DNA from: Phenylobacterium sp.
GTDB lineage: Bacteria > Pseudomonadota > Alphaproteobacteria > Caulobacterales > Caulobacteraceae
Reading direction: 5' to 3'
Assembly: GCA_004799545.1 (NCBI GenBank)
Contig: SSMU01000005.1
Location: 186,001 to 250,000, forward strand
DNA: 64,000 nt
Shown: positions 1 to 43,693 of the stretch, in pieces
How positions within the stretch are numbered: the stretch's first letter is position 1
Layout: the number at the start of each line of letters is the position of its first letter
Translations under genes and position numbers: made by a program
The notes under the pieces: generated by a model
Seen by the model: the letters and a program-made list of their open reading frames with translations, nothing else
Databases searched by the model: none
What the model was told of the DNA's origin: nothing

Positions 1-563
1 TGCAGCCGGTCGGCCCACACCGTCTTCGGCGTGGCGGCCAGCCCCACCTCGCGCACCTCGTCCATCAGGGTGTCGGCCTGCCGGCGCCGGGCCGTCACAT
101 AGGCCGCCTCGAACTCCGGGAACCGCTCCAGCCAGTGGTAGATGGTGGCCGCGCAGGGCATCGCCGGGTCCCGCCCGATGGCCTTCAGGCTCTCGCCGTT
201 CGCCAGCCGCTCACAGATCGCCTCGGCCAGGTCCGGGCAATAGCGGCTGGTGGCCAGCCCGCCCCGGCTCCGCGGCCGGGCCAGCTGCGCCGCCCGAAGC
301 CGCGCCATCCGCGCCCGCCCCCGCACCCGCGCCGCCGTCCGCGCCTGACCCTGCGCCGCCGCCAGCCCCTCGGCGAACGCGGGCTCGCCCTGGGCCCACT
401 TCCACACCGTGGTGCGGTCCGGCATCCCCGGCTCCGCCGAGATCTCCCGCAGGCTCGCCCCCGCCGCCACCCGCGCGCAAACCGCCTGGCCCAGCTCGGC
501 GGAGTACAGACTCTCCCGCCACCCCGCCCCGCACCGCCCCGCCGGATCCGCCGCCAACCCCAT
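1..563 (-). CDS. Terminase small subunit-like tandem HTH protein (C-terminus truncated by window edge)
   Basis: Frame missing from the ORF track because it runs off the edge. Reverse-strand translation from ATG at 563: MGLAADPAGRCGAGWRESLYSAELGQAVCARVAAGASLREISAEPGMPDRTTVWKWAQGEPAFAEGL...YCPDLAEAICERLANGESLKAIGRDPAMPCAATIYHWLERFPEFEAAYV. Two copies of the (A)xxxIxxxPxMPxxxTVxxW HTH motif. Confidence 0.7.
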   Translation of the reverse strand, partial: MGLAADPAGRCGAGWRESLYSAELGQAVCARVAAGASLREISAEPGMPDRTTVWKWAQGEPAFAEGLAAAQGQARTAARVRGRARMARLRAAQLARPRSRGGLATSRYCPDLAEAICERLANGESLKAIGRDPAMPCAATIYHWLERFPEFEAAYVTARRRQADTLMDEVREVGLAATPKTVWADRL

Positions 564-614
564 CCCCGCCTCCGCTCCGTCCGAGCCAGCGCGCACCCAC
601 GACGCCTCCGCCCC

Positions 615-674
615 TACCTCCCCCGTTCACGGGGGAGGGGGACCGCTCGCCGAAGAGCGAGCGGTGGAGGGGGC
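615..674. repeat. Palindromic repeat, family B half-element (CTCCCCCGTTCACGGGGGAGGGGGACCGCTCGCCGAAGAGCGAGCGGTGGAGGGGG)
   Basis: Two hairpins read directly; related sequence at 42162-42326 and, inverted, at about 46321-46380. Confidence 0.7.
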
Positions 675-759
675 AAGCCCCAAGCCCAATTTTCAGGAAT
701 GCCCGATCCTACCCGAAAACGCGCGCAGACGCAAGAACAAATAGAGAACTCACGCCCAG

Positions 760-883
760 TTCCTCCCCCGCAGGGGGAGGTGGGCCGAAGGCCCGGAGGG
801 GGTTTCCTCAACGGCCTCCCAACCGAACCTTCTGAGCTGAAACCCCCTCAGTCCCTCCGGGACAGCTCCCCCAGTAGGGGAGC
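760..883 (+). repeat. Palindromic repeat, family A copy 1
   Basis: TCCTCCCCCGCAGGGGGAGGTGGGCCGAAGGCCCGGAGGGGGTTTCC...GAAACCCCCTCAGTCCCTCCGGGACAGCTCCCCCAGTAGGGGAGC; same architecture as 5066-5172 and 7091-7214. Confidence 0.85.
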
Positions 884-951
884 AACTGGCTCCGCCTTCA
901 CAGAACACCGGTCTTGCCCAATGATCCCCCGGGCGAAAGGGAGGGCGAGCC

Positions 952-1248
952 ATGGCCGCGCTGACGACATTCATCCCGCTGCTGATGCGGCCGCCGTTGA
1001 ACTGGGCGCCGGTCCCAGCGGCGGTGGGCGGAGGCCTGATCGGGGGCGCCTTCGGGGGCCTGGTCGGCATCCTCGTCGGCAAATGGGTCAAGCGCACCTG
1101 GCCCGACGCGCCGCCGCAGACCGCCAAGCTGTCCGGCGCGGTGGCCGGCGCCGGCGTCGGCTTCGCCACCGGCTTCATCCTCGGCGGCCCGATCGGCGGC
1201 GCCATCGGCGGCCTGATCGGCGGCGCCATAGGCTGGTTCGGCACCTAG
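952..1248 (+). CDS. Small glycine-zipper membrane protein
   Basis: 98 aa; repeated GGxxGGxxG motifs (GGGLIGGAFGGLVG, GGPIGGAIGGLIGGAIG). Confidence 0.6.
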   Translation: MAALTTFIPLLMRPPLNWAPVPAAVGGGLIGGAFGGLVGILVGKWVKRTWPDAPPQTAKLSGAVAGAGVGFATGFILGGPIGGAIGGLIGGAIGWFGT

Positions 1249-1257
1249 CACCGCGCC

Positions 1258-1320
1258 CTTTCCCTCCCCTTCATGGGGAGGGTGGCCGGGGCGAAGCCCC
1301 GCCGGGTGGGGAAGTCACGA
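1258..1320. repeat. Short palindromic repeat downstream of the glycine-zipper gene
   Basis: CCCTCCCCTTCATGGGGAGGGTGGCCGGGGCGAAGCCCCGCCGGGTGGGG; two nested hairpins. Confidence 0.6.
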
Positions 1321-1356
1321 CCGGGCTCCGAGCGAGCCGGCTATCGAACCTCCCCC

Positions 1357-2076
1357 TCAATGCAGCGTCTCGCCCGACGCCGTCTTGCGGACCACCGCCT
1401 TGTTCTGAACCGCCCACGCCGCGAGCGCCTCCTTGACGCAACCCCAGAGCAGGCCATGGCCGCGCGGGATGCGACGAACGCCGAACCGCCCGCGCGCCAT
1501 GTCGCGCGCCAGCCGCCACTTCGCCGCCGGGTGGCCCAAGGCGACCGCGCGTTCGAGCAGGGCTCGCCCCTCGTCGCGCGCCTCACGGCTCGCGGGGCGC
1601 TTCAGCCGCAGGCTTGCGAGCTGGTAGATCGCCGGCGCCCAGTCCGCGGCGGCGCCCCTCCGGAATACCTTTTCGGCCGCCTCTGTGTCGCCTTCCCACA
1701 CCAGAATGGTTCCGTAGGACAGCAGGGCGCGCAGCGACCCGTGCTCGTAGGCCCGCTTCAACCAGGCCTCCGCGTGGCCGCTGTCGGCGGCGGTCTCCCG
1801 CTCCCAGAAGTATCGCTCGCCCACGCAGACCATGGCCACGACCGACCCCGCCTCTGCGAGGCTCAGCAGCGCCTTGAACGCCGCCGGCCGGTCGGTGGCG
1901 CGCAATTCTAAAGCGGAGCGGAGGCCATCCGGCTCGGCGTCCCAATCGGTGTGGCTGTCCGCCTGGGCATAGTCCCAACCGCTATATTGACGGTGCAGGT
2001 CGGCCTTTGTCGGCCCCCCCGCCCACCGTTCAAGCCTGCCGGCCAGGTTCCGCAACAGCCCCCGCGGTCCAAGCAT
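1357..2076 (-). CDS. Sel1/TPR-like repeat protein
   Basis: 239 aa; Sel1-like spacing (AEAWLKRAYEHGSLRALLSYGTI, AEKVFRRGAAADWAPAIYQLASL, ALLERAVALGHPAAKWRLA). Confidence 0.65.
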   Translation of the reverse strand: MLGPRGLLRNLAGRLERWAGGPTKADLHRQYSGWDYAQADSHTDWDAEPDGLRSALELRATDRPAAFKALLSLAEAGSVVAMVCVGERYFWERETAADSGHAEAWLKRAYEHGSLRALLSYGTILVWEGDTEAAEKVFRRGAAADWAPAIYQLASLRLKRPASREARDEGRALLERAVALGHPAAKWRLARDMARGRFGVRRIPRGHGLLWGCVKEALAAWAVQNKAVVRKTASGETLH

Positions 2077-2240
2077 CCCCTCGCCCCCGGCGGAACACGC
2101 CGCCCAATGTATGGCAGACCTGGGCTTGGACGTCAGAACTTGCGCTCCTGATCACCTAGCCCAGGCGCAAGCGTTTACGACGCGATTGGCGAGATTGAGC
2201 TACGCGGTTGGACGTTTCGAAGAAGCGCTTTTCGAGCGGC

Positions 2241-2846
2241 TCAGCGAAAACACGTGTCAATCAATTCATAGTCGAGGCCACTCAGCGCTCGGACAAATTT
2301 CCTAAAGGAACGACTGTTATTGTAAAGTTTATAAAGGTTGAGTTTTTGCGTCAGCTTTAGCTGATCGGTCATCGGTTTATAGTGTTTAGACATCGCCTCG
2401 TTTAATTTTCCTTTGGCGTCGCGAATCGACGAAGGATCACCGCAATCAAAATTTTCTCGCCATTCATAGTCGGGTGCCAACGCTCTCAGCGTCTCCATCT
2501 CATGTAAGAACCAACATTCATATTCTCGAACGCAGAAACAGACGCTCACGTCGACTTCGGGGCGATTGGGCATTTCTCTTATGCGGCGTAAAAACTCCAC
2601 CTGCATCTCAGCCGCACATCCATCGTCAAGGTCGACAACAATAAATATTTGCTCGATGTCGCCCCTGGACGCCGCAAGTTCAACAAATCTCTCCAACTGA
2701 CCTGGCCGCGATAATTTATGAATACCGCCGGACTCAATAGGATGAGGGGCAAAAACCGCCATACCCATGATCTGGGCCGTCTTGGTGATCAGGCATGGCA
2801 CTGCCTGTGCATCACCCCCGCCTTCTAATATGACGGCTATCTTCAA
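2241..2846 (-). CDS. DUF4276 family protein (TOPRIM-like)
   Basis: MKIAVILEGGGDAQAVPCLI...GGIHKLSRPGQLERFVELAA...IFIVVDLDDGCAAE...CVREYECWFL; overlaps the upstream ATPase gene by 4 nt. Confidence 0.7.
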   Translation of the reverse strand: MKIAVILEGGGDAQAVPCLITKTAQIMGMAVFAPHPIESGGIHKLSRPGQLERFVELAASRGDIEQIFIVVDLDDGCAAEMQVEFLRRIREMPNRPEVDVSVCFCVREYECWFLHEMETLRALAPDYEWRENFDCGDPSSIRDAKGKLNEAMSKHYKPMTDQLKLTQKLNLYKLYNNSRSFRKFVRALSGLDYELIDTCFR

Positions 2847-4033
2847 TTTTCAGAAAAGCCTTCGTTGACGAATAGCTCCCCGGCCGTAAAGAGTTGCTTC
2901 TTTATGATCCCGAGTTGCCGGGCTGTAATAGGTCCACACTTCGTGATTCCGTCGTGTTGCTTCGTCCAAATTATCGATTCTGGATCGAATAAATCCAGTA
3001 AAGATGGGCTATGAGTTGTAATAAATACCTGTCTATATGGGTCCCCGATATCGGTCACGAATTCCTTGGCCGCGTCCGCCAGAATCGGAAGCACACCCGG
3101 GTGAATCATCTGCTCAGGTTCTTCAAGAGCGATAATTCCTGGCGCGTTTGGCTGATAAAACGCAGCAAGCAATCCGAGAACTCTCAACGTCCCATCGGAT
3201 ACTTGAGACATGTTGAATATATGCGCCTCCCCGGAGCTCTCTTTTACTTGGATGACGGGGACGTAGTAGCCGCCGGCCGACCGGGTCGTAACATCGGCCA
3301 AATTGGGCATGATTAGGCGAAGAGACTCAATCAGCGAGTCCTTGCTTCGTTTGTGGGAGCCTATGAGCCGCAGAATGCTGGGCAAATTCGAGCCGTCTGC
3401 TAACAGCCGATCTTCGCGCGAAACGACTCGCGGCTCTCGAAGAGTATTCGGGTATATGGAATAGGATATGAAAGATCTTAAATCTTCAACTAGAGGACGG
3501 AGAGCAAGATTCAGAATCGAAAAATGAGGTCCAGCTAGCGACGTTGAAAACAATTCCGTTGGACCAAGTAGAAAATCTGTGCCGTGGTGACCGATATTGT
3601 CGGGGTTGGTCGACATTTCGACCTTGCCGTCGGCGGTCCTCTTGAAGGTCGTTGTGCGAGGCTCGGCGTCGTCATCGCGCGCGAACCTATCCGGCCCCGT
3701 GAATTCACCTTCCTCTTCGGCAACTCGGTAGGTCCCCCTTCCCGAGGAGAGCACAAATTTATACCGACCCCGTCCTTCGTCATTCAGAACGTGAAGTTCA
3801 ATTGTAATATAGTATGGCTTCGTCTTAGACCATTGACGAATACTCTCAATCCCATGACGCTTCACGATGGCGGTGTCTAAGTCTTCGCTTATGCAATCAT
3901 GTACGAAATAAAGCGCATCTACGACATTGCTTTTGCCGTTCGCGTTACGACCAACCAATAGATTGACGGGGTTAAGGTCGAGGTGGGCTTCTGCCACGCT
4001 CTTGAAGCGCGAGATGTATGCATGAGTGATCAA
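2843..4033 (-). CDS. AAA family ATPase (AAA_21/OLD-like, SMC/ABC-type ATPase)
   Basis: Walker A GRNANGKSNVVDAL; signature SQVSDGTLRVLGLLA; Walker B GIIALEEPEQMIHPG; H-loop VFITTHSPSLLDLF. Confidence 0.88.
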   Translation of the reverse strand: MITHAYISRFKSVAEAHLDLNPVNLLVGRNANGKSNVVDALYFVHDCISEDLDTAIVKRHGIESIRQWSKTKPYYITIELHVLNDEGRGRYKFVLSSGRGTYRVAEEEGEFTGPDRFARDDDAEPRTTTFKRTADGKVEMSTNPDNIGHHGTDFLLGPTELFSTSLAGPHFSILNLALRPLVEDLRSFISYSIYPNTLREPRVVSREDRLLADGSNLPSILRLIGSHKRSKDSLIESLRLIMPNLADVTTRSAGGYYVPVIQVKESSGEAHIFNMSQVSDGTLRVLGLLAAFYQPNAPGIIALEEPEQMIHPGVLPILADAAKEFVTDIGDPYRQVFITTHSPSLLDLFDPESIIWTKQHDGITKCGPITARQLGIIKKQLFTAGELFVNEGFSEN

Positions 4034-4177
4034 TCGCGCTTCCCCAAGTTAAGCATTGTCGCCGTCGTGTCGGCGCACAAGCGGGCTGTTCATTCTACCG
4101 ACTACGCGAGGATTGGGTAGATCGCTTCCCCAAAGTTCCCCTTCCGTTCACCGCCCCGCTGACCTAACTTCAGCGCC

Positions 4178-7102
4178 GTGACTCTCCCCCCCACCCCAAC
4201 CTCCCTGGCCCCCGCCCTCGTCGTCCTCCCCGGCCCCCGCGCGGCGGTCGCCGACGCCAACTCCGCGCAGCCCCTCCGCGCCCCCGACGCCCGCGACCTC
4301 TTCGACTCCGCCCCCGTCCTCGTCGCGCACGCGGGCATGACCGCCCGCCGGCTCGGCCTACACGTCCCGCCCCGCTCCCCCCGCATCTTCGACGCCCTGG
4401 AGCTCTACGCCTTCGCCCGGCCCGCCCGCTTCACCGCCCCCTCCGCCGCGGGCCTGGCCCAGGCCCTGGGCCTCGCCGAGCCCAAGGGCGCCGAGGCCCA
4501 GGCCACAGCGCTGCGCCAGGTCTGCGCCCTCCTCCTCTCCGAGCTGGCCGCCACGCCGGAGCCCTCCCGCGAGGAGGCCCTGGCCATCGCCGAGACCCTG
4601 TCGCGCGGCGGCTGGGCCTGGGGGACCGCCGTGATCGCCGCCCTGCGCTCGGCGCCGGTGGGCAACGCCTTCCGCACCTCCGGCCTCGACGTCTGGATGC
4701 GGCTCTCCGAATGGGAGGCCGAGGCGCCGGCCGGGGAGCCGGGCTCCAAGCCGATCGCGCCGGAGGCCGCGGCCGCGCGGCTGGCCGAGCTGCTGGCCCG
4801 CGCCGGCCTCGACGAGGCGCGGCCCAGCCAGTCCGACTACGCCGCCGAGACGGCGCACAGCTTCCAGCCGCGCGAGCGGGAGGGGGAACCGCGATTCACT
4901 CTTGCTGAAGCAGGAACAGGCGTCGGCAAGACCCTGGGCTACCTGGCGCCGGCCTCCCTCTGGGCCGAGGCCAACGGCGGGGCGGTGTGGGTCTCGACCT
5001 ATACCCGCGCCCTGCAGCGGCAGATCGAGCGGGAGAGCCGGATGCTGTATCCGGCCGTGGAAGATCCTCCCCTCAGGGGGAGGTGGCCCGGAGGGCCGGA
5101 GGGGGTTTCAGCCGCCGACTCGGGGCTTCAACCCCCTCAGTCGCTTCGCGACAGCTCCCCCTCGGGGGGAGCATCTAAGGCCTCCCGCCGCCAGCGCGTG
5201 GTGGTCCGCAAGGGGCGCGAGAACTACCTCTGCCTGCTGAACTTCCAGGAGCAGGCGAACGCCGCCCAGCTCGGCGCCGGCGACCTGGTGGGCATGGGGC
5301 TGGCCGCCCGCTGGGCGCGCACCACCCGCGACGGCGACATGACCGGCGGCGACTTCCCGGCCTGGCTGCCCAGCCTGTTTTCCATCGGCCCGGCCGCCCA
5401 GGCGAGCCCCGCCAACCTGGTCGACCGGCGGGGCGAATGCATCCACGCCGGCTGTTCCCACTACCGCACCTGTTTCGTGGAGAAGGCGATCCGCGGCTCG
5501 CGGCGGGCCGACATCGTCATCGCCAACCACGCCCTCGTCATGACCCAGGCGGCGTTCGACGGGGCCCGCGCGGCGCGTGGCTCCAAGGCGGACGGCGAGA
5601 CCAGCCTCCTCAAGCGCATCGTGTTCGACGAGGGCCACCACCTGTTCGACGCGGCCGACAGCGCCTTCTCGGCGGCGCTCTCCGGGGCGGAGGCGGCGGA
5701 GATGCGCCGCTGGATCCGCGGGCCGGAAGGCCGTGGGCGACGGGGTCGTGGCCTGGAAGCCCGGCTGATGGAGGTGCTGGGCGACGCCGAGGAGGCGCAG
5801 GGCGCCCTGATCGCCGCCACCCGCGCCGCCGCCGCCCTCCCCGGCGAAGGCTGGAGCGGGCGGATCGCGCCGATGGGCGGCGAGGTGAACCCGATGGGCC
5901 CGATCGAGGGCTTCCTGGTGGCGGTGCTGGAGCAACTGCGGGCCCGCGCGGCGCCCAGCGAAGTGGGCATGGAATGTTCGGCCCGGCCGGCGCTGGACCT
6001 GGTGCGGGAGACCGCGCGGACCGCGGCCCAGGCCCTGGCCGGGGTCGAGGCGCCGCTGCTGGCCCTGGCGCGCCAGCTGGAGGACCTGCTGGACCAGGAA
6101 GCGGCGACGCTCGGCGCGAGCGAGCGGGCCAGAATCGAAGGCGCCCTGCGCGGCCTCGACCGGCGGGCGCGGATGACCCTGCCGGCCTGGCGCTCGATGC
6201 TTCGGGCCATCGACGAGGACGCCGAGGACGACCCCGACTTCGTCGACTGGTTCGACGCCACCTTCCTCTATGGCCGGGTGGTGGACGCGGCCTGCCGCCG
6301 CCACTGGGTCGACCCCACCGAGCCCCTGACCAACGCGGTGATCGCCCCGGCGCACGGCGTGCTCGTCACCTCGGCCACCCTCACCGACCCGACCCTGGAC
6401 GACCCCTTCGCCCTGGCCGAGATGCGCACCGGGGCGGCGCGGCTGCCGGAGCGGCCGAAGACCCTGAAGCTCCCCTCGCCCTTCGACTACGCCTCCCAGG
6501 CCCGGGCCTTCGTGGTCACCGATGTGGGCCGCGAGGATCCGCGCCAGGTGGCCGCCGCCATGCGCGAGCTGTTCCTGGCGGCGGGCGGCGGGGGCCTGGG
6601 CCTGTTCACCGCCATCCGCCGGCTGAAGGCGGTGCACGAGAAGATCGCCGCGCCGCTGGCCGACCGCGGCCTCGCCCTCTACGCCCAGCACGTCGATCCG
6701 CTGGAGGTGGGCGCGCTCGTCGACATCTTCCGCGCCGAGGAGGACGCCTGCCTGCTGGGCACCGACGCGGTGCGCGACGGGGTGGACGTGCCGGGCCGCT
6801 CGCTGCGCCTGCTGGTCTTCGACCGCATCCCCTGGCCGCGGCCGGACATCCTGCACAAGGCGCGTCGGGCGAGGTTCGGCGGCAAGGGCTACGACGACGC
6901 CGTGGCCCGCGCGAGGATCGCCCAGGCCTTCGGCCGCCTGATCCGCCGGGCCGACGACAAGGGCTGCTTCGTCATGCTCGACGCCGCCGCCCCGACCCGC
7001 CTCTTCTCCTCCCTCCCCGAAGCCATCGACCTCCAGCGCGTCAGCCTCGTCGAGGCGATCGAGGGGGTCGCGGAATTCCTCGGCCAAGTTGCTCCCCCCT
7101 AG
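4178..7102 (+). CDS. ATP-dependent DNA helicase, DinG/XPD-like superfamily 2
   Basis: 974 aa from GTG; FTLAEAGTGVGKTLGYLAP, VFDEGHHLFDAADS, clustered Cys (CIHAGCSHYRTC), C-terminal QAFGRLIRRADDKG. Confidence 0.88.
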   Translation: MTLPPTPTSLAPALVVLPGPRAAVADANSAQPLRAPDARDLFDSAPVLVAHAGMTARRLGLHVPPRSPRIFDALELYAFARPARFTAPSAAGLAQALGLAEPKGAEAQATALRQVCALLLSELAATPEPSREEALAIAETLSRGGWAWGTAVIAALRSAPVGNAFRTSGLDVWMRLSEWEAEAPAGEPGSKPIAPEAAAARLAELLARAGLDEARPSQSDYAAETAHSFQPREREGEPRFTLAEAGTGVGKTLGYLAPASLWAEANGGAVWVSTYTRALQRQIERESRMLYPAVEDPPLRGRWPGGPEGVSAADSGLQPPQSLRDSSPSGGASKASRRQRVVVRKGRENYLCLLNFQEQANAAQLGAGDLVGMGLAARWARTTRDGDMTGGDFPAWLPSLFSIGPAAQASPANLVDRRGECIHAGCSHYRTCFVEKAIRGSRRADIVIANHALVMTQAAFDGARAARGSKADGETSLLKRIVFDEGHHLFDAADSAFSAALSGAEAAEMRRWIRGPEGRGRRGRGLEARLMEVLGDAEEAQGALIAATRAAAALPGEGWSGRIAPMGGEVNPMGPIEGFLVAVLEQLRARAAPSEVGMECSARPALDLVRETARTAAQALAGVEAPLLALARQLEDLLDQEAATLGASERARIEGALRGLDRRARMTLPAWRSMLRAIDEDAEDDPDFVDWFDATFLYGRVVDAACRRHWVDPTEPLTNAVIAPAHGVLVTSATLTDPTLDDPFALAEMRTGAARLPERPKTLKLPSPFDYASQARAFVVTDVGREDPRQVAAAMRELFLAAGGGGLGLFTAIRRLKAVHEKIAAPLADRGLALYAQHVDPLEVGALVDIFRAEEDACLLGTDAVRDGVDVPGRSLRLLVFDRIPWPRPDILHKARRARFGGKGYDDAVARARIAQAFGRLIRRADDKGCFVMLDAAAPTRLFSSLPEAIDLQRVSLVEAIEGVAEFLGQVAPP
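5066..5172 (+). repeat. Palindromic repeat, family A copy 2, in frame inside the helicase CDS
   Basis: CCTCCCCTCAGGGGGAGGTGGCCCGGAGGGCCGGAGGGGGTTTCAGCCGCCGACTCGGGGCTTCAACCCCCTCAGTCGCTTCGCGACAGCTCCCCCTCGGGGGGAGC. Confidence 0.9.
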
Positions 7103-7214
7103 GGGGAGCTGTCGCGGAGCGACTGAGGGGGTTTCCACTCAGAACGCCCAGCTGCGAGTCCGCTGAGGAAACCCCCTCCGGCCCTCTGGGCCACCTCCCC
7201 CTGCGGGGGAGGAA
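7091..7214 (-). repeat. Palindromic repeat, family A copy 3, inverted; overlaps the helicase stop codon
   Basis: GCTCCCCCCTAGGGGGAGCTGTCGCGGAGCGACTGAGGGGGTTT...AAACCCCCTCCGGCCCTCTGGGCCACCTCCCCCTGCGGGGGAGG. Confidence 0.9.
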
Positions 7215-7220
7215 CGGGCT

Positions 7221-7664
7221 CTACCCCCACCCCGCCGCCTTGCGCCCCGCCAGCGCCGGCTCCAGGCCGGCCAGGATCTTGGTCCAACCGTCCTGGCTGC
7301 CCTCCGCCCATTGGTCGGGGACATCGCGCTGGGTGAGGGTCAGCTCGCAGCCGCGTCCCGCCGGCCTGATCTCGACCTCGACCCGCGTCATGCCGGGATC
7401 GAACTGCGGCACGCCGAAGGTGAACACCAGCCGCCTCGGCCGGTCGATCTCCAGGTATTCGCCGACGTGCTTGACGTCGCCCATGTCGGGCCGCCGCTCG
7501 GTCAGGTCGAAGCGGCCGCCGACCTTGCCGTCGATCTCACAGATGATCATCTGTCCCGCCGGCGTCGCGAACAGGAAGCGCGGGGCGACCTTCGGATCGA
7601 GCCAGGCGTCGAACACCCGCTCGGGGCTCGCGGAATAGCGGTGGGTCACGGAGACCTCAGCCAT
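7221..7664 (-). CDS. SRPBCC/AHSA1 domain protein
   Basis: MAEVSVTHRYSASPERVFDAWLDPKVAPRFLFA...VGGRFDLTERRPDMGDVKHVGEYLEIDRPRRLVFTFG. Confidence 0.85.
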   Translation of the reverse strand: MAEVSVTHRYSASPERVFDAWLDPKVAPRFLFATPAGQMIICEIDGKVGGRFDLTERRPDMGDVKHVGEYLEIDRPRRLVFTFGVPQFDPGMTRVEVEIRPAGRGCELTLTQRDVPDQWAEGSQDGWTKILAGLEPALAGRKAAGWG

Positions 7665-7694
7665 GGCCGTCTTGCTCCTTGAGGATCCGGGCGT

Positions 7695-8642
7695 CTAGGC
7701 CGCCACCGACAGCAGCTCGAACAGGTCGGCCGGATAGGGGGAGGCGTAGGCGGCCAGCCCCAGCCGCGCGCGCACCGCCTCGACCGGCTGGTCCCACAGC
7801 CCCTCCCAGTCGACGCCCAGCAGCGGCGGGCTCTCGCGGCCGTGGGTCCAGGCGGTGAGGATGATGTCGAGGAACAGCGGCGCCGCCTCCGGCCGTTGCA
7901 GGGCCGCCCGGGAGGTCGCCATGCCGAGGAACATCGCCGAGTAGCCATGACCGAACTGGGCGAGCTGGAAGGCCGAGATGGCCACCTCGTGCAGGCTGGT
8001 GGTGCGGTAGCCCGCCGCCAGGTGCCAGAGGTCGTGGCACTGCAGGATTCGGGTGTTGAGGTAGTCGAGCGGCGGCGGCAGGTTGGCGAGGCCGAGGGCG
8101 TCTCGGTCGAGCACCTCGAGGTCGAAGCCGTTCTCGACGATCAGGGCGTGGAAGTCGCCGCCCAGCGAGCCGGCCGGGCAACGGGCCAGGGCCTCCAGGG
8201 TGAAGCGCCGCGGATAGCCCTGGGCGACCGCCTCGGCGCAGCCGGGATAGGCCAGGGCCATGGCCCCGATCCGGGCCGCGGCGCCGGGCGACAGATGGCC
8301 CAGCAGCGCGGCCGTGCGCTCGGTGACCCCGCCCGCCCCCAGGCTCCCCGGCGGCTCGGCGAGCAGGGCCCAGAAGGCTTGCCAGAACCCCGCCGGGATC
8401 GGCTCCGGGGGCAGCTCGGGCGCGACGATCGGCGGGGCCTGCGGCGCGCGGCCCAGCCACCCGGCCGCCGCCGCGTCGTAGATCGCCGGCAGCCGCTCCG
8501 GGGTCGCCGTCGCCGCCCGCAGCCACAGCGCCGCCAGCGCCCGGAAGTCCTCGGCCTCGCCGCCGGCCCGCAGCCGCGCGGCCACGGCCTGGGCGTCGCC
8601 GGCCGGCGCCTGGACGAGCGCCTCGAACCCCGCGCGGTCCAT
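7695..8642 (-). CDS. Coq4 family protein
   Basis: Start at MDRAGFEAL (ATG 8642); contains HDLWHLAAGYRTTSLHEVA, matching the Coq4 HDxxHx11E metal motif. Confidence 0.75.
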   Translation of the reverse strand: MDRAGFEALVQAPAGDAQAVAARLRAGGEAEDFRALAALWLRAATATPERLPAIYDAAAAGWLGRAPQAPPIVAPELPPEPIPAGFWQAFWALLAEPPGSLGAGGVTERTAALLGHLSPGAAARIGAMALAYPGCAEAVAQGYPRRFTLEALARCPAGSLGGDFHALIVENGFDLEVLDRDALGLANLPPPLDYLNTRILQCHDLWHLAAGYRTTSLHEVAISAFQLAQFGHGYSAMFLGMATSRAALQRPEAAPLFLDIILTAWTHGRESPPLLGVDWEGLWDQPVEAVRARLGLAAYASPYPADLFELLSVAA

Positions 8643-8975
8643 CAGTGCGGGCTGGCGGGCGTGGCGGGCGGCGCCGGCGGCGGGCTCGTGGGCGGCGCCG
8701 GCTGGGCGGGTTGCCCGCCGCCGCCCGGCCGCATCCGCGCCATCGCCGCGGCCAGCTCCTCGACGGTGATCTTGCCGTCGTGGTTGGTGTCGACGAGGTC
8801 GAACCGCTCGGCCGGCCGGCCGGCGGCCACCCACTCGTCCTTGCTGATCGTGCCGTCGCCGTCCTTGTCCCAGGCCTTCACGATGTCGGCCGGCGAGGGC
8901 ATCTGGGCGGCGGCGACGCCCGCCACGCCGGTGACGGCCAGGGCGGCCGCGGCGGCGAGAATGAGGGTGCGCATC
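8642..8975 (-). CDS. Secreted EF-hand domain protein
   Basis: Signal peptide MRTLILAAAAALAVTGVAGVAAAQ; EF-hand loops DKDGDGTISKDEW and DTNHDGKITVEEL. Confidence 0.8.
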
Positions 8976-9027
8976 GTGAGGTGTCTCCTTGGGTCGCCGG
9001 AAGTATCGGCTGTCCCGGGCGCGCGCA

Positions 9028-25216: not shown

Positions 25217-25266
25217 GTCGCAGTTCCGGCGGATGAAACGTAACGGGAACATGCTATAGGGCCTGG

Positions 25267-27750
25267 ATGGCCGACGCCGGCGCCAACCTTCCCGATCTGT
25301 TGCCGCCCCGGTTCCAGGCCTGGTTCGGGGGGCGCGGCTGGAGCCCGCGCAGCCATCAGCTGGAGATGGTGGCCGAGGCCCGGGCCGGCCGCGACGCCCT
25401 GCTGATCGCCCCGACCGGCGGCGGCAAGACCCTGGCCGGCTTCCTGCCGAGCCTGATCGAGCTCTCCGAGCGGCCGCCCGCCAACACCCCGCCCGGGCTC
25501 CATACCCTCTACATCTCGCCGCTGAAGGCGCTGGCGGTGGATGTCGAGCGCAACCTCACCGCGCCTATCCTGGAGATGGGCCTGCCGATCACCGCGGAGA
25601 GCCGCACCGGGGACACCGGCATCGCGCGCCGCCAGCGGCAACGGGTGAAGCCACCGGAGATTCTGCTGACCACGCCCGAGCAGCTCGCCCTGCTCTGCGC
25701 CTGGGAGGGCGCGCGGCTGTTCTTCGAGAACCTCAGCTGCGTGATCCTCGACGAGATCCATACCCTGCATGCCTCCAAGCGCGGCGACCTGCTGGCGCTC
25801 GACCTGGCGCGGCTCTCGACGCTCGCGCCCAACATGCGCCGCGTCGGCCTGTCGGCGACGGTCGATGACCCGGAGGTGATCAAGCGCTGGATGGCCGGGC
25901 CGGCTGGACCGGAGGCTATCGAACTGGTCCGTGGACCGCCCGGCGCCCAGCCGATCGTCGACATGCTGCTCTCGGAAGGCCGAGTGCCCTGGGCCGGCCA
26001 CACCGCGCAGCACGCCATGGCCGAGGTTTATGAGGCGATCAAGCACGCGAGGACGGCGCTGGTGTTCGTCAACACTCGGTTCCAGGCGGAGTTCGCCTTC
26101 CAGGAGCTCTGGCGGCTGAACGAGGACGCCCTGCCGATCGCCCTGCACCACGGCAGCCTGGCGGCCGAGCAGCGGCGCAAGGTCGAGGCGGCGATGGCCA
26201 AGGGCTCGCTGCGCGCCGTGGTCTGCACCTCGACGCTCGACCTGGGCATCGACTGGGGCGACGTGGACCTGGTGATCCAGCTCGCCTCTCCCAAGGGCGC
26301 GGCGCGGATGGTCCAGCGGATCGGCCGCGCCAACCATCGGCTGGACGAGCCCAGCCGCGCCCTCTTCGTGCCGGCCAACCGGTTCGAGATGCTGGAGTGC
26401 CAGGCGGCGCGCGAGGCGATCGCCGCCAACCACCTGGATGGCGACCCGCCGCGGGACGGGGCGCTCGACGTCCTGGCCCAGCACGTCATGGGCTGCGCCT
26501 GCTCCGAGCCGTTCGACCTGCTCGCCCTCTACGACGAAGTGCGGACCGCCGGACCCTACCGCGACCTCGCCTGGGAGGACTTCGAGCAGGTGGTCGATTT
26601 CGTCTCCACCGGCGGCTACGCCCTGAAGACCTACGACCGCTTCCGGCGGATCGTGAAGGGCCCAAAAGACGATCAAGGAGGGGACGGGCTCTGGCGGGTG
26701 CGCAACGCCGAGGTCGCCCAGCGGCATCGGCTGAACGTCGGCGCCATCGTCTCCCCGGCCATGCTGGCGGTCCGGATCGCCGGGCGCAGAGGCTCGGTCG
26801 GGCGCAAGATCGGCGAGATCGAGGAAGGCATGCTGGAGATGCTCGACCCCGGCGACACCTTTGTGTTCGCCGGCCAGGTCTGGGAGCTGGTCGGCATCAC
26901 CAACCTCGATGTGCTGGTGCGACCGGGCGGAGCCAAGGATCCCAAGATGCCGTCCTGGGGCGGATCGAAGTTCGCGCTCTCCACCTTCCTCGCCCAGCGG
27001 GTGCGCCAGCTGATGACCGATCAGGACCATTGGAAGGTGCTGCCCACCGACGTGCGGGAGTGGCTGGAGGCGCAGCGCGACCGCTCGCTGATCCCGGGCG
27101 AGGACGAGATGCTGCTGGAGACTTTCCCGCGCGGTCACCGGCACTTCATGGTCTGCTACCCGTTCGACGGACGGCTGGCGCACACCACGCTCGCCATGTT
27201 GCTGACGCGGCGGCTGGAGCGGGCGGGCGCGGCGCCCCTGGGCTTCGTCTGCAACGACTATGCGCTGGCGGTCTGGGCGCTGAAGCCGCTGGACGACCTC
27301 AACTTCGACGACCTGTTCAACGAGGACATGCTGGGCGACGACCTAGAAGCGTGGCTCGCGGAAAGCTTCATGATGAAGCGCGCCTTCAAGGGCTGCGCGA
27401 TCATCGCCGGCCTGATCGAGCGGCGCTTCCCGGGCGACAAGCAGAAGACCGGCCGGCAGATCACCTTCTCCACCGACCTGATCTATGACGTGCTGCGCCG
27501 CCACGAGCCGGACCACCTGCTGCTGCGCTGCGCGCGGGCCGATGCGGCGACCGGCCTCATCGACGTGGCGCGGCTGGGGCAGATGTTGACGCGTATCCGC
27601 GGCCGCATCAGACACGCTGCGCTCGACCACCTGTCGCCGTTCTCAGTGCCGATCCTGCTGGAGATCGGCAAGGAGCGCTCGCCAGGCCAGGCGGGCGAGA
27701 TCATCCTGCACGAAGCCGAGGAAGACCTGATCGCCGAGGCCCTGAGCTAG
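25267..27750 (+). CDS. Ligase-associated DNA damage response DEXH box helicase (Lhr-type)
   Basis: LLIAPTGGGKTLAGFLP; CVILDEIHTLHASKRGDLLAL; ALVFVNTRFQAEF; MVQRIGRANHRLDEPSRA. Confidence 0.92.
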   Translation: MADAGANLPDLLPPRFQAWFGGRGWSPRSHQLEMVAEARAGRDALLIAPTGGGKTLAGFLPSLIELSERPPANTPPGLHTLYISPLKALAVDVERNLTAPILEMGLPITAESRTGDTGIARRQRQRVKPPEILLTTPEQLALLCAWEGARLFFENLSCVILDEIHTLHASKRGDLLALDLARLSTLAPNMRRVGLSATVDDPEVIKRWMAGPAGPEAIELVRGPPGAQPIVDMLLSEGRVPWAGHTAQHAMAEVYEAIKHARTALVFVNTRFQAEFAFQELWRLNEDALPIALHHGSLAAEQRRKVEAAMAKGSLRAVVCTSTLDLGIDWGDVDLVIQLASPKGAARMVQRIGRANHRLDEPSRALFVPANRFEMLECQAAREAIAANHLDGDPPRDGALDVLAQHVMGCACSEPFDLLALYDEVRTAGPYRDLAWEDFEQVVDFVSTGGYALKTYDRFRRIVKGPKDDQGGDGLWRVRNAEVAQRHRLNVGAIVSPAMLAVRIAGRRGSVGRKIGEIEEGMLEMLDPGDTFVFAGQVWELVGITNLDVLVRPGGAKDPKMPSWGGSKFALSTFLAQRVRQLMTDQDHWKVLPTDVREWLEAQRDRSLIPGEDEMLLETFPRGHRHFMVCYPFDGRLAHTTLAMLLTRRLERAGAAPLGFVCNDYALAVWALKPLDDLNFDDLFNEDMLGDDLEAWLAESFMMKRAFKGCAIIAGLIERRFPGDKQKTGRQITFSTDLIYDVLRRHEPDHLLLRCARADAATGLIDVARLGQMLTRIRGRIRHAALDHLSPFSVPILLEIGKERSPGQAGEIILHEAEEDLIAEALS

Positions 27751-37051: not shown

Positions 37052-37203
37052 CGATCCACCCAGCCGAGCGGGCCTTATAGCCCTGATTTGCGCGCCTGCG
37101 CTTCCGCGGTTTGGCGATCCAAACAACTGTTTCGTTCCGCTTTGCCGGCGCCGGCGCGGGCGCTAAGGTGTCGCCTCGTTTGCCTTAACGCGTGGAGGAC
37201 GCC

Positions 37204-38427
37204 ATGGCCGACTTTGGCGGCGCCGATCTCGAGGCCTTCCGCACGGAAGTCCGCAGCTGGCTGGAGGCCAACTATCCGGCGGAGCTGCGCGCGGCGGACG
37301 CCAAGACCGATCCGGAGGCCGTCTGGGGCGGCCGCGCGTTCGAAGGCTCCAACGATCCGCAGATCGTCTGGATGGAGCGCATGGCCGAGCAGGGTTGGAC
37401 CGCGCCGACCTGGCCCAAGGACTACGGCGGCGGCGGGCTCTCGCCGCAGCAGGCCCGCGTGCTGGACCAGGAGTTGGCGGCCGGTCGCTATCGCCCTGCC
37501 CTGCTCTCCTTCGGCCTGTGGATGCTGGGCCCGGTGCTGCTCGAATACGCCAACGAGGCGCAGAAGAAGGAACACCTGCCGAAGATCATCCAAGGCAAGA
37601 TCCGCTGGTGCCAGGGCTATTCAGAGCCGGGCGCCGGCTCCGACCTCGCCGGGCTGCAGACCAAGTGCGTCGACGCGGGCGACCACTGGCAGATCGACGG
37701 GTCGAAGGTGTGGACCAGCTACGCCGACAAGGCGGACTGGTGCTTCTGCCTGGTGCGCACCGACGCCTCCAAGAAGCACGAGGGCATCTCCTTCGTGCTG
37801 ATCGACATGCGCACGCCCGGCGTCGAGACGCGGCCGATCCTGCTGATCTCCGGCGAGAGTCCGTTCTGCGAGACATTCTTCACCGAGGTGAAGATCCCCA
37901 AGGGCAACCTGGTTGGCCGGATGAACGGCGGCTGGGAGATCGCCAAGCGGCTGTTGCAATACGAGCGGCAGAACATCTCGGCGGGCTTCGGCGAGGGCGG
38001 CTCGGCGGGCGGCGCGTCCGGCGACCTGGCGGAGATCGCCAAGCGCTACACGGGCGAGGGCGCCGACGGCGTGCTGCAGGACCAGGACCTGCGCGGCCGG
38101 ATCACCCGCAACAAGATGGACTTCCAGGCCCTGCGCCAGACCATCGCCCGCTCGGCGGCGGAATCGAAGGCCGGCAACGGCCCCTCGGCCACCACCTCGA
38201 TCATCAAATATGCGGCCGCGGAATCGGCCAAGGAGCGCTCGGAGCTGATGGTCGAGGCGCTGGGCGCGCTGGGCCTCGGCTGGAGCGGCGAGGGCTTCAC
38301 CCCGGCCGAGCTCGCCGCGGTGCACGGCTGGCTGCGCACCAAAGCCAACTCCATCGAGGGCGGCACCTCGGAGATCAACCTGAACGTGGTGGCCAAGCGC
38401 GTGCTGGGCCTGCCCGACCCGAAATAA
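37204..38427 (+). CDS. Acyl-CoA dehydrogenase, large-type paralogue 1
   Basis: MADFGGADLEAFRTEVRSWL; WCQGYSEPGAGSDLAGLQTK; SIEGGTSEINLNVVAKRVLGLP. Confidence 0.92.
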   Translation: MADFGGADLEAFRTEVRSWLEANYPAELRAADAKTDPEAVWGGRAFEGSNDPQIVWMERMAEQGWTAPTWPKDYGGGGLSPQQARVLDQELAAGRYRPALLSFGLWMLGPVLLEYANEAQKKEHLPKIIQGKIRWCQGYSEPGAGSDLAGLQTKCVDAGDHWQIDGSKVWTSYADKADWCFCLVRTDASKKHEGISFVLIDMRTPGVETRPILLISGESPFCETFFTEVKIPKGNLVGRMNGGWEIAKRLLQYERQNISAGFGEGGSAGGASGDLAEIAKRYTGEGADGVLQDQDLRGRITRNKMDFQALRQTIARSAAESKAGNGPSATTSIIKYAAAESAKERSELMVEALGALGLGWSGEGFTPAELAAVHGWLRTKANSIEGGTSEINLNVVAKRVLGLPDPK

Positions 38428-38439
38428 GGACGAGCGAGA

Positions 38440-39651
38440 ATGGCGGATTTCGGCGGCGCTGAACTGGAGACCTTCCGGGCCGAGGCCCGGACCTGGCTCG
38501 AGGACAACTTCCCCAAGAGCCTGGCGCACAACGCCGACGCCCAGCTCGCCAAACTGCAGGCGCGGCCCGAGAGCGCCGAGGCCAAGACCTGGCGCCACGC
38601 CCTGGGCGCCAAAGGCTGGGGCGTGCCCACCTGGCCGAAGGAGGCGGGCGGCGGCGGCCTGTCCCGCGCCGAGGCCAAGGTGCTGGCCGAGGAGATGGCC
38701 GCGGCCGGCGCGCGCAATCCGATCGGCGGGATGGGCGTCGCCTTCTTCGGCCCGACGCTGTTGGAATACGGCAGTGAGGCGCTGAAGCGCGAGCACCTGC
38801 CGGGCATCGTCATGGGCGACGTCTGGTGGTGCCAGGGCTATTCCGAGCCGGGCTCAGGGTCGGACCTGGCGAGCCTGCAGACCTTCGCCGAGGACAAGGG
38901 CGACCACTTCCTCGTCTCGGGCTCGAAGGTGTGGACCAGCGGCGCCCAGAACGCCGATCGCTGCTACTGTCTGGTGCGCACCGACCGCTCGAAGAAGCAC
39001 GAGGGGATCAGCTTCCTGCTGATCGACATGAAGGCGCCCGGCGTCGAGGCCCGGCCGATCAAGCTGATCAACGGGACGTCGCCCTTCTGCGAGACCTTCT
39101 TCACCGATGTGAAGGTGCCCAAGGACCAGCTGTTCGGGCCGCTGAACGGCGGCTGGACCGTGGCCAAGCGGCTGATGCAGTTCGAGCGGGACTCGATCGC
39201 GGGCTCCCTGGGCGGCGGCAACATCGGCCAGACCGTGGCCATGCCGACCATCCCCGAGGCCGCCAAGGCCTATGCCGGGGTCGACGAGACGGGCCGCGTG
39301 GCCGACGCCGACCTGCGCCGCCGGATCACCGACCACCTGATGGACAACCGCGCCTTCCAGCTGACCATGAAGCGGGCGGCCGACGATGCGCGGGCCTCGA
39401 ACGGCCCCTCCAACGCCGCGGCGAGCATGAAGTACGCCGGCGCCAAGGTGGCTCAGGAGCGCAACGAGCTGATGCTGGAGGCCATGGGCCACCAGGGCCT
39501 GGGCTGGGCTGGCGACGGCTTCTCGGAGGCCGAGCTCTCGGCGGTGCGCACCATGTTGCGGTCCAAGGCCAACTCCATCGAGGGCGGCACCTCGGAGATC
39601 AATCTGAACATCGTCTCCAAGCGCGTCCTTGGCCTGCCCGATCCGAAGTAG
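38440..39651 (+). CDS. Acyl-CoA dehydrogenase, large-type paralogue 2
   Basis: MADFGGAELETFRAEARTWL; WCQGYSEPGSGSDLASLQT; SIEGGTSEINLNIVSKRVLGLP. Confidence 0.92.
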   Translation: MADFGGAELETFRAEARTWLEDNFPKSLAHNADAQLAKLQARPESAEAKTWRHALGAKGWGVPTWPKEAGGGGLSRAEAKVLAEEMAAAGARNPIGGMGVAFFGPTLLEYGSEALKREHLPGIVMGDVWWCQGYSEPGSGSDLASLQTFAEDKGDHFLVSGSKVWTSGAQNADRCYCLVRTDRSKKHEGISFLLIDMKAPGVEARPIKLINGTSPFCETFFTDVKVPKDQLFGPLNGGWTVAKRLMQFERDSIAGSLGGGNIGQTVAMPTIPEAAKAYAGVDETGRVADADLRRRITDHLMDNRAFQLTMKRAADDARASNGPSNAAASMKYAGAKVAQERNELMLEAMGHQGLGWAGDGFSEAELSAVRTMLRSKANSIEGGTSEINLNIVSKRVLGLPDPK

Positions 39652-39685
39652 TCAGGCCTGACTCCTAAGCGTCTATTTTGCGTGT

Positions 39686-39691
39686 TATAAT
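39686..39691 (+). promoter_or_regulatory. Possible internal promoter -10 (TATAAT) in the AT-rich gap before paralogue 3
   Basis: GTGTTATAATGATTTAAAATATTGAATTCC in an otherwise GC-rich operon; -35 not clear. Confidence 0.35.
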
Positions 39692-39725
39692 GATTTAAAA
39701 TATTGAATTCCTAGGGAGAATTCCA

Positions 39726-40922
39726 ATGGCCGATTTTGGCGGCGCCGACCTCGACGCCTTCCGGGCCGAGGCCCGCGATTGGATCGAGGCCAATTTCCCC
39801 GAGTCTCTGAAGACCGTCGAGATCGCCATGATCCCCGGCGGCGAGAAGCCCACGGACGACGGGCTGCTCTGGAAGCAGCGGATGGCCGACAAGGGCTGGG
39901 GCGCGCCCACCTGGCCGACCCAGTACGGCGGCGGCGGCCTCTCCGGCGCCCAGGCCCGGGTGCTGCAGCAGGAGATGGACCGCGCTGGCGCCTACAATCC
40001 GGTGGCCGGCATGGGCACCTCGATGTTCGGCCCGACGCTGCTGGAATACGGCACCGAGGCGCAGAAGCAGCGGCACATCCCACCGATCGTGAAGGGCGAG
40101 CTGCGCTGGTGCCAGGGCTACTCCGAACCGGGCGCCGGGTCGGACCTGGCCAGCCTGCAAACCAAGTGCGTCGACAAGGGCGACCATTGGCAAATTGACG
40201 GCAGTAAGATCTGGACCAGCGGCGCGCAATTCGCCGACTGGTGCTTCTGCCTGGTGCGCACCGACACCTCCAAGAAGCACGAGGGGATCAGCTTCGTGCT
40301 GATCGACATGCGCCAGCCGGGCGTCGAGACGCGGCCGATCAAGCTGATCGCCGGCAACTCGCCGTTCTGCGAGACCTTCTTCACCGCGGCGCGGGCCGAG
40401 AAGGACGACATGGTGGGACCGCTGAACGGCGGCTGGACGATCGGCAAGCGGCTGCTGCAGCACGAGCGGTCGGGCCAGGGCGGCAACCGGATGATGGCCG
40501 GCGTGGGCTCGGTGCCGGACCTGGCGAAGGCCTACGTCGGCCTCGACGACCAGGGCCGGATCGCCGATCCAGACCTGCGCACGCGGATCGCCCGGCACAT
40601 GATGGACGCCCGCGCCCACGGCCTGACCCTGAAGCGCGCGGCCGACGAGGCGAAGGGCAATGTGAACCCGTCCGCCACCACCTCGGTGATGAAGAACTCC
40701 GGCACCTGGATCGGCCAGGAGAAGGCCGAGCTGACCCTGGAGATCATGGGCGCCCAGGGTCTCGGCTGGGAGGGCGAGGCCTTCAACAAGGACGAGCGCG
40801 ACGCGGTCAGGACCTGGCTCTCGGGCAAGGCCACGACGATCTTCGGCGGCAGCCAGGAGATCCAGTCGAACATCGTCTCCAAGCGCATCCTGGGTCTGCC
40901 GGATACCACGCAGAACGGCTGA
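39726..40922 (+). CDS. Acyl-CoA dehydrogenase, large-type paralogue 3
   Basis: MADFGGADLDAFRAEARDWI; WCQGYSEPGAGSDLASLQTK; TIFGGSQEIQSNIVSKRILGLP. Confidence 0.92.
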   Translation: MADFGGADLDAFRAEARDWIEANFPESLKTVEIAMIPGGEKPTDDGLLWKQRMADKGWGAPTWPTQYGGGGLSGAQARVLQQEMDRAGAYNPVAGMGTSMFGPTLLEYGTEAQKQRHIPPIVKGELRWCQGYSEPGAGSDLASLQTKCVDKGDHWQIDGSKIWTSGAQFADWCFCLVRTDTSKKHEGISFVLIDMRQPGVETRPIKLIAGNSPFCETFFTAARAEKDDMVGPLNGGWTIGKRLLQHERSGQGGNRMMAGVGSVPDLAKAYVGLDDQGRIADPDLRTRIARHMMDARAHGLTLKRAADEAKGNVNPSATTSVMKNSGTWIGQEKAELTLEIMGAQGLGWEGEAFNKDERDAVRTWLSGKATTIFGGSQEIQSNIVSKRILGLPDTTQNG

Positions 40923-40935
40923 GGAGGACTGAGCC

Positions 40936-42153
40936 ATGGCCGATTTCGGAGCCCACGACCTCGAGACCTTCCGGGCCGAGGCCCGCGAATGGCTGGCGGC
41001 GAACTTCCCGGCGAGCCTGCGGGGCGAGAGCCTGGCGATGGAGGGGCCGGAGGAGCGCAGCGCCGACCGCGAGGCCTGGCGCAAGGCGATGGGCGAGATG
41101 GGCTGGGGGACGCCCACCTGGCCCAAGGCCTACGGCGGCGGAGGGCTCTCCAAGGACCAGGCCAAACTCCTGGCCGAGGAGATGAACGCGATCGGCGCCT
41201 ACAACCCGATCGGCGGCATGGGCGTGATCATGTTCGGCCCGACGTTGCTGGAGTACGGCGACGAAGAGCAGAAGCGCCGGCACATCCCGCCGATCGTCAA
41301 GGGCGAGCTGCGCTGGTGCCAGGGCTTCTCCGAACCGGGGTCGGGATCGGACCTGGCGAGCCTGCAGACCAAGGCCATCGACGCCGGTGATCATTTCGTC
41401 GTAAGTGGTTCAAAAATATGGACTTCTGGCGCTCACTTGGCCGACTGGTGCTTCTGCCTGGTGCGCACCGACCCGACCAAGAAGCATGAGGGGATCAGCT
41501 TCGTGCTGATCGACATGAAGACGCCGGGCGTGGAGCCGCGGCCGATCCTGTTGATCAACGGCACCACGCCCTTCTGCGAGACCTTCTTCACCGACGTCGC
41601 CGTGCCGAAGGAGAACCTGGTCGGGCCGCTGAACGGCGGCTGGACCATCGCCAAGCGGCTCTTGCAGCACGAGCGGCAGGGGATCTCCGGGGCCGGCCAG
41701 CTGACGCCCGGCGCGCAGGCGGGCTCGGTCGGCGGGCCGCCGCTGGAGGCGCTGGCGAAAAGCTATGTGGGCGTCGACGAGGACGGGCGGCTGGCGGACG
41801 CCGACCTCAGGAGCCGGATCACCGCCCACCTGATGGAGGCCCAGGCCTTCCAGCTGACCGGGCGCCGCGCCACCGAGGAAAGCCGCTCCAACCAGGGGCC
41901 GTCGGCGGTGTCGTCGATCCTCAAGAACGTCGGCTCCAAGGTGCGCCAGGAGCGCGCCGAGCTCACCGTCGAGGTGCTCGGCCACCAGGGCCTGGGCTGG
42001 ACCGGCGAGGGCTTCGACCGCGACGAGATCATGGCGGCCCGCGCCTGGCTGCGCGGCAAGAGCGGCACGATCGCCGGCGGCTCCTACGAGATCCAGAACA
42101 ACATCATCTCCAAGCGGATTCTGGGTCTTCCGGAGACCACGCAGAAGGGGTGA
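40936..42153 (+). CDS. Acyl-CoA dehydrogenase, large-type paralogue 4
   Basis: MADFGAHDLETFRAEAREWL; WCQGFSEPGSGSDLASLQTK; TIAGGSYEIQNNIISKRILGLP. Confidence 0.92.
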   Translation: MADFGAHDLETFRAEAREWLAANFPASLRGESLAMEGPEERSADREAWRKAMGEMGWGTPTWPKAYGGGGLSKDQAKLLAEEMNAIGAYNPIGGMGVIMFGPTLLEYGDEEQKRRHIPPIVKGELRWCQGFSEPGSGSDLASLQTKAIDAGDHFVVSGSKIWTSGAHLADWCFCLVRTDPTKKHEGISFVLIDMKTPGVEPRPILLINGTTPFCETFFTDVAVPKENLVGPLNGGWTIAKRLLQHERQGISGAGQLTPGAQAGSVGGPPLEALAKSYVGVDEDGRLADADLRSRITAHLMEAQAFQLTGRRATEESRSNQGPSAVSSILKNVGSKVRQERAELTVEVLGHQGLGWTGEGFDRDEIMAARAWLRGKSGTIAGGSYEIQNNIISKRILGLPETTQKG

Positions 42154-42161
42154 TCGCCTCT

Positions 42162-42326
42162 TCCTTTCCCGTTCACGGGAAAGGGGGACCGTCGGCCGAG
42201 GACCGCGAAGCGGGCCGGAGAGCCGAGGGTGGAAAGGGGAGGGCGGCCCGCAGTGCGGTGGCCCTCCCTCTCCACCACCCGCTCTTCGGCGGGTGGTCCC
42301 CCTCTCCCGCTTCGCGGGAAAGGAAG
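42162..42326. repeat. Palindromic repeat, family B full element, between paralogues 4 and 5
   Basis: CCTTTCCCGTTCACGGGAAAGGGGGACC...GGTCCCCCTCTCCCGCTTCGCGGGAAAGG; arms pair over about 165 bp with internal hairpins. Confidence 0.85.
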
Positions 42327-42397
42327 GTAAGACAATTGGTGACGGGGGCGTCATTTCACGCCCCGGATGGTCGAGACGGATTTCAAGGAGCGATTTG

Positions 42398-43603: not shown

Positions 43604-43693
43604 GAATAGGAACCACGGTTCAAAAAACCCCCTTGATCCCCGCCGTCGCGCGGGGCTGAAATTGAAACCAAGTTATTTCGAGGAAACAGAGAA

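What the first reader, a model, noticed from the sequence alone, without database searches (positions are those of the whole stretch)
5066..5172. Palindromic repeat inserted in frame inside a DinG/XPD-type helicase gene
A family A repeat, otherwise intergenic at 760-883, lies inside the helicase ORF without breaking it. It encodes about 36 residues (approximately DPPLRGRWPGGPEGVSAADSGLQPPQSLRDSSPSGGA) between the strand after the Walker A motif (YTRALQRQIERESRMLYP) and the Fe-S-region lead-in (RQRVVVRKGRENYLC). This resembles the protein-coding palindromic elements described in Rickettsia. If translated, a mobile repeat has become a surface loop of an essential-type helicase fold.
Basis: partly seen in the sequence, partly recalled or inferred. 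Interest (0 to 1): 0.72.

Follow-up and report, generated by a model that had tools for sequence, protein, structure and literature searches.

The report
Mobile repeat translated inside helicase loop
A small palindromic DNA repeat has landed inside a DNA-repair helicase gene of a Phenylobacterium bacterium without breaking it, and related species have repeatedly gained similar repeats at this same spot and at matching spots in two other genes, so these protein loops act as natural safe landing sites for repeats.

Summary
A 115-bp compound palindromic repeat (5062-5176) lies in frame in a 974-aa YoaA/DinG-type Fe-S helicase gene (4178-7102). The genome has about 25 copies of the repeat; this is the only one I found inside a gene. 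Homologues show a clean gap: 103 of 108 loci carry 12 residues where the window carries 52. The gene is under purifying selection (dN/dS about 0.14), so it is no pseudogene.

The new point is recurrence. Three Phenylobacterium species of 101 carry repeat-derived peptide in this same loop. They sit in three separate clades, and one common clade is rejected (AU p = 6e-8). Of 175 repeats tested across Caulobacteraceae, 8 lie inside genes, in only three gene loops, each reused by different species: this helicase, the ligase-associated DEXH helicase, and hydantoinase/oxoprolinase. A genus survey suggests about 26 of 94 and 9 of 90 genomes have insertions at the latter two. All 32 repeat-proven, readable inserts keep the frame. 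Inserts evolve near neutrally (dN/dS 0.6-1.5) beside strongly constrained native codons.

Best reading: repeats insert widely, selection removes nearly all in-gene copies, and a few permissive loops keep them as translated, mostly neutral linkers. This works like Rickettsia palindromic elements, but membership is untested; the CIR and tagged-REP criteria fail.

The parts
4178..7102 (+). YoaA/DinG-type Fe-S DNA helicase gene, 974 aa; N-terminal ~230 aa resembles the exonuclease-like half of DnaQ-DinG fusions (inference)
   Evidence: PF13307 E 3e-19; NCBIfam YoaA 4e-62 and DinG 2e-51, both below the curated cut-offs; cysteines C352, C421, C426, C432 invariant in 62 homologues; dN/dS 0.087/0.64 against L032
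5062..5176 (+). in-frame palindromic element, residues about 296-333 (DPPLRGRWPGGPEGVSAADSGLQPPQSLRDSSPSGGAS)
5080..5105 (+). Y half of the element (GAGGTGG..CCGGAGGGGG)
   Evidence: every full element is one Y half plus one inverted X half
5133..5158 (-). X half of the element, inverted (CCCCTCAGTC..GACAGCTCC)
758..887 (.). intergenic copy of the same element
7087..7218 (.). third copy between convergent genes; it supplies the helicase's last codons and its TAG stop (7100-7102)
25237..27651 (+). ligase-associated DEXH helicase gene, insert-free in this genome; its orthologues carry repeat inserts in many relatives
   Evidence: TIGR04121 1070 bits; window position computed from G000:C26:211801

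Best explanation
A non-autonomous, compound palindromic repeat (always one Y half and one inverted X half) inserted in frame into a permissive loop of a YoaA/DinG-type helicase, between the motif Ia helix and the first Fe-S cysteine, and is translated as an extra, probably flexible segment of about 38 residues. Such repeats insert widely in Phenylobacterium genomes. Selection removes nearly all copies that fall inside genes, except those in a few very tolerant loops where insert length and frame happen to fit. Those loops are therefore hit again in independent lineages. Shown: the repeat, its in-frame position, the clean gap in homologues, separate acquisitions at the same loop, recurrence in two other genes, frame retention, and near-neutral insert evolution. 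Inferred: translation into stable protein, flexibility of the segment, and a transposition-like spreading mechanism whose enzyme is unknown.
For: About 25 genomic copies. Gap in 103 of 108 homologue loci. Three carriers in 101 genus genomes and 3 in 390 family genomes for this peptide and frame, in three separate starred clades; AU test p = 6e-8 against one clade. Flank identity between carriers is not raised, so no recent transfer. The window and L104 inserts match copies of their own genomes best. Of 175 distinct elements tested, 8 lie in coding ORFs, in three gene loops only. At the DEXH helicase site 20 of 24 long segments and 0 of 36 short ones hold repeat DNA; at the hydantoinase site 9 of 11 and 0 of 31. 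The reused loops hold different repeat families and both orientations. About 1 in 6 random insertions would fit frame and stops, yet all 32 repeat-proven readable inserts do. Insert dN/dS is 0.6-1.5 beside native codons at 0-0.15.
Against: No proteomics. All three helicase carriers share Arg-Val before VVRKGR, a pair found in none of the non-carriers, and an X' half of similar short-stem type, rare among copies of the L104 genome; both hint at an older shared allele or local exchange. The L071 insert is only a 65-nt remnant. Most genomes are metagenome assemblies. The 175 elements were chosen by similarity to the window's element, so other host genes may have been missed. The structure model is too poor to show the loop.
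Confidence: 0.8

Rival explanations
1. One old insertion allele arose once and reached the three Phenylobacterium lineages by local recombination (or was lost everywhere else); the site was not hit independently.
For: Shared Arg-Val before VVRKGR in 3 of 3 carriers and in no non-carrier; the same orientation and reading frame of the X' half in all three; short-stem X' halves are rare in the L104 genome; window and L104 both have Ala-Val just left of the element.
Against: Carriers are not unusually alike in the 15-60 codons on either side. Y halves and spacers differ, and the window and L104 inserts match their own genomes best. Clean loss would have to restore the native DPKVRAKK residues many times. 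The DEXH and hydantoinase loops show the same recurrence with unrelated inserts.
Confidence: 0.18
2. The elements are aimed at these sites, or at DNA-repair genes, by sequence- or structure-specific insertion, and the inserts change helicase activity.
For: Two of the three reused genes are DNA-repair helicases. PMC3733652 reports REP insertions enriched in replication and repair genes, and REPs at about the same site in Xanthomonas recB.
Against: Insertion points vary by several residues within a loop and involve different repeat families and orientations. Insert codons evolve near neutrally. The third host is a metabolic enzyme. I saw no shared target motif, but ran no formal motif test.
Confidence: 0.12
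3. The insert is not translated: it is skipped by translational bypassing or cut from the mRNA.
For: The RNA would fold into a very stable cloverleaf-like hairpin cluster (-81 kcal/mol predicted).
Against: Skipping would not require the frame, yet all 32 readable inserts are multiples of three without stops (expected about 1 in 6); insert indels stay in codons.
Confidence: 0.03
4. The gene is a decaying pseudogene.
For: The N-terminal exonuclease-like region may be degenerate (inference only).
Against: 974-aa open frame; dN/dS about 0.14 against L032, in line with insert-free pairs; helicase motifs and four cysteines intact.
Confidence: 0.02

Closest known systems
Rickettsia palindromic elements (RPE), protein-coding palindromic repeats of Rickettsia and Wolbachia
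   Same: About 100-bp palindromic repeats found in frame inside genes that remain functional (as summarised in PMC3733652 and PMC2229807)
   Different: Free-living GC-rich Caulobacteraceae; the copies are almost all intergenic; sequence kinship with RPEs not tested; one loop is reused across species
REP/BIME palindromic repeats, GTAG- and CGTC-tagged families (PMC3733652)
   Same: Compound inverted pair of two different half-repeats; mostly intergenic and near gene ends; supplies a stop codon; some intragenic copies in DNA-repair genes
   Different: No GTAG or CGTC at the stem feet (0 of 100); no RAYT-type (PF01797) transposase in the own genome, and RAYT loci of relatives are not flanked by the element
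CIR, the CcrM-associated intergenic repeats of Caulobacter and Brucella
   Same: Roughly 110-bp intergenic repeats of Alphaproteobacteria with two arms and a linker (per PMC2229807)
   Different: The defining GANTC site is not conserved here (10 of 96 copies, expected 27); PMC2229807 lists CIR without an open reading frame
Enterobacterial RU/ERIC and Neisseria Correia elements found inside genes (PMC2759123, PMC2229807)
   Same: Small mobile repeats that can be fused into reading frames
   Different: Different sequence, structure and hosts

Membership tests
Rickettsia palindromic element (RPE) | palindromic repeat inserted in frame within a functional ORF | tested here: met
Rickettsia palindromic element (RPE) | sequence homology to an RPE family | not tested
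   no RPE sequences were fetched
Rickettsia palindromic element (RPE) | product present in the protein or transcript | not testable with these tools
   needs proteomics
CIR (CcrM-associated intergenic repeat) | conserved GANTC site in one arm | tested here: not met
   GANTC in 10 of 96 copies against 27 expected by shuffling
CIR (CcrM-associated intergenic repeat) | sequence identity with published CIR1-4 | not tested
   the original paper is not held
GTAG/CGTC REP | GTAG or CGTC tetranucleotide at the hairpin foot | tested here: not met
   0 of 100 Y-X pairs
GTAG/CGTC REP | associated RAYT (Y1 transposase, PF01797) | tested here: not met
   none in the own genome; 20 of 101 genus genomes have one, not flanked by the element in the 10 loci checked
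BIME-like compound repeat | two different half-repeats in inverted order | tested here: met
   83 Y-X pairs, 0 Y-Y and 0 X-X
DinG/YoaA/XPD helicase family (host gene) | helicase C-terminal domain and Fe-S cysteines between motifs I and II | tested here: met
   PF13307; four invariant cysteines; aligns with 6FWR
YoaA or DinG equivalog | curated NCBIfam score cut-off | tested here: not met
   211 of 680 bits and 175 of 789 bits

The most novel reading that the evidence does not exclude
Insertion of palindromic repeats is biased towards, or positively kept in, specific loops of DNA-repair helicases, so that repeats repeatedly add regulatory or functional segments to repair enzymes, which would give a selective reason for the long-noted excess of REPs in repair genes.
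Probability: 0.12. Interest if true: 0.8.

Novelty: new variant of a known kind. Interest (0 to 1): 0.6.

Why it matters
In-frame palindromic repeats are known mainly from Rickettsia and scattered REP cases. Here a common free-living genus offers a natural replicate experiment: different repeats entering the same loops in many species. That lets one test directly whether such insertions are neutral passengers or raw material for new protein function, and it maps loops of three enzymes that tolerate 10-60 foreign residues.

Tried and rejected
RAYT as the mover: no PF01797 in the own genome, and no element beside ten RAYT loci of relatives. CIR membership: GANTC below expectation. Recent horizontal transfer of the helicase insert: flanks not unusually alike. 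Origin from the copy at the gene's 3' end: that copy (81%) is not the closest, and only 7 of 87 loci have an element there. Other in-gene repeats in the own genome: none among about 25 family A and 25 family B copies. Rfam: no hit in 1-9000. AlphaFold: mean pLDDT 59; the insert is the worst part (24-30), but so are other regions, so it shows little. One DEXH insert (L374, G091) reads out of frame but holds an ambiguous base; two others (L388, L397) are unreadable because of Ns or a contig end.

Full report
OBSERVATION. The ORF 4178-7102 encodes 974 aa and belongs to the YoaA/DinG group of Fe-S helicases: PF13307, NCBIfam YoaA and DinG as best but sub-threshold hits, four invariant cysteines at residues 352, 421, 426 and 432. 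At 5062-5176 it holds a compound palindromic repeat. The own genome (4.03 Mb, 30 contigs) has about 25 recognisable copies, the best with E 1e-32, including 758-887 and 7087-7218 in the window. The strand folds with z = -6.1 as DNA or RNA.

ANATOMY OF THE REPEAT. Every full copy is a Y half (GAGGTGG..CCGGAGGGGG), a spacer of 15-52 nt, and an inverted X half (CCCCTCAGTC..GACAGCTCC): 83 Y-X pairs were found, and no Y-Y or X-X pair. The ends read AGAT(G/C)CTCC..GGAG(G/C)ATCT or TTCCTCC..GGAGCAA. The element is found in 44 of 60 genomes of the genus. The genus is Phenylobacterium judging by the names of the closest homologue records.

HOMOLOGUES. Of 108 homologue loci, 103 have 12 aa between conserved blocks flanking the site, two have 17 from a change elsewhere, and three are longer: L071 (30), L104 (44) and the window (52). 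All three extra segments are repeat-derived, in the same orientation and frame of the X' half (PPQSLRDSSPSGGA, PPQSLHDSSPKGGA). A search of 101 genus genomes and 390 family genomes with the right half of the insert found only these three; this search sees one orientation and frame only.

INDEPENDENCE. In the gene tree, with the insert columns left out, the carriers fall in three separate supported clades, each with insert-free neighbours. Holding them together is rejected (AU p = 6e-8; window with L071 p = 0.006; window with L104 p = 1e-4). Their flanks are not unusually similar, and the window and L104 inserts match copies of their own genomes best. A counter-hint remains: all three share Arg-Val before VVRKGR and a short-stem X' half. 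Separate acquisition is shown; independent transposition rather than old local exchange is likely but not proven.

OTHER GENES. I tested 175 distinct elements from Caulobacteraceae loci for lying in an ORF with coding-like flanks in one frame. Eight did, in three places only: this helicase (3), the ligase-associated DNA-damage DEXH helicase TIGR04121 (2), and hydantoinase/oxoprolinase (3). With coding DNA at about 85% of such genomes (assumed), random placement would put about 150 of 175 in genes. Genus surveys with insert-free queries then showed split matches at the DEXH site in about 26 of 94 genomes and at the hydantoinase site in about 9 of 90. In the stretches I fetched, 20 of 24 long DEXH segments and 9 of 11 long hydantoinase segments match repeat DNA taken only from noncoding copies; none of 36 and 31 short ones do. 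On the helicase tree, the 7 DEXH carriers and 5 hydantoinase carriers that could be placed need 7 and 5 changes. Insertion points differ by a few residues and involve several repeat families and both orientations, which fits a tolerant loop better than a fixed DNA target.

FRAME AND SELECTION. Elements have on average 2.9 of 6 frames open and lengths spread evenly over the three classes, so about 1 in 6 random insertions would be harmless to the frame. All 32 repeat-proven readable inserts fit; one further case is out of frame next to an ambiguous base. Between related carriers of the DEXH insert, dN/dS is 0.6-1.5 in the insert and 0-0.15 in the adjoining native codons, and indels keep the frame. 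The window helicase itself has dN 0.087 and dS 0.64 against L032. So these are translated-frame segments in working genes with little constraint on their own sequence.

WHERE IN THE PROTEIN. The profile aligns with E. coli DinG (6FWR): the insert falls in the link between the helix after motif Ia (STANVALQDQI / STYTRALQRQI) and the stretch leading to the first Fe-S cysteine (GRGRYVC / KGRENYLC). The AlphaFold model is too weak to add to this.

MECHANISM. Supported: frequent insertion, removal of most in-gene copies, survival in few tolerant loops. The moving enzyme is unknown; no Y1/RAYT transposase is in the own genome (about 92% complete) and RAYT loci of relatives lack the element.

COMPARISON. 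PMC3733652 reports intragenic REPs, an excess in replication and repair genes, stop codons supplied by repeats, and REPs at about the same site in two Xanthomonas recB genes; it also suggests neutrality in flexible loops. PMC2229807 summarises RPE, RU, Correia and CIR elements. Our element is not a tagged REP, fails the GANTC criterion of CIR, and was not compared by sequence with RPEs. What is added is the scale of site reuse by different repeats in one genus, with selection estimates. Known kind, new variant.

Noticed in passing
window 7087-7218: A third copy lies between convergent genes and supplies the last codons and the TAG stop of the helicase; L071 and L102 have elements overlapping the same gene end.
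   Followed up: partly
window 2244-4033 (-): An AAA-ATPase gene and a downstream 201-aa gene match the candidate anti-phage system HEC-01 A and B (PADLOC).
   Followed up: partly
window 630-673 and 42266-42309: A second palindromic family (GGGGAGGGGGACC..GGTGGAGGGGG), about 25 hits in the own genome, none inside genes there; relatives carry it inside the DEXH and hydantoinase loops.
   Followed up: partly
window 37200-43900: Five tandem related genes of about 1.2 kb spacing (60-85% alike), probably acyl-CoA dehydrogenase paralogues.
   Followed up: no
L158, L159, L234 (hydantoinase gene, linker between the A and B domains): A second variable stretch holds peptides that look like other repeat families (e.g. 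HPGEGRDP..GPGLRRDE), suggesting another tolerant linker.
   Followed up: no
L374 (G091), DEXH helicase: The only repeat insert that reads out of frame; an ambiguous base sits beside the break, so it may be an assembly error.
   Followed up: partly
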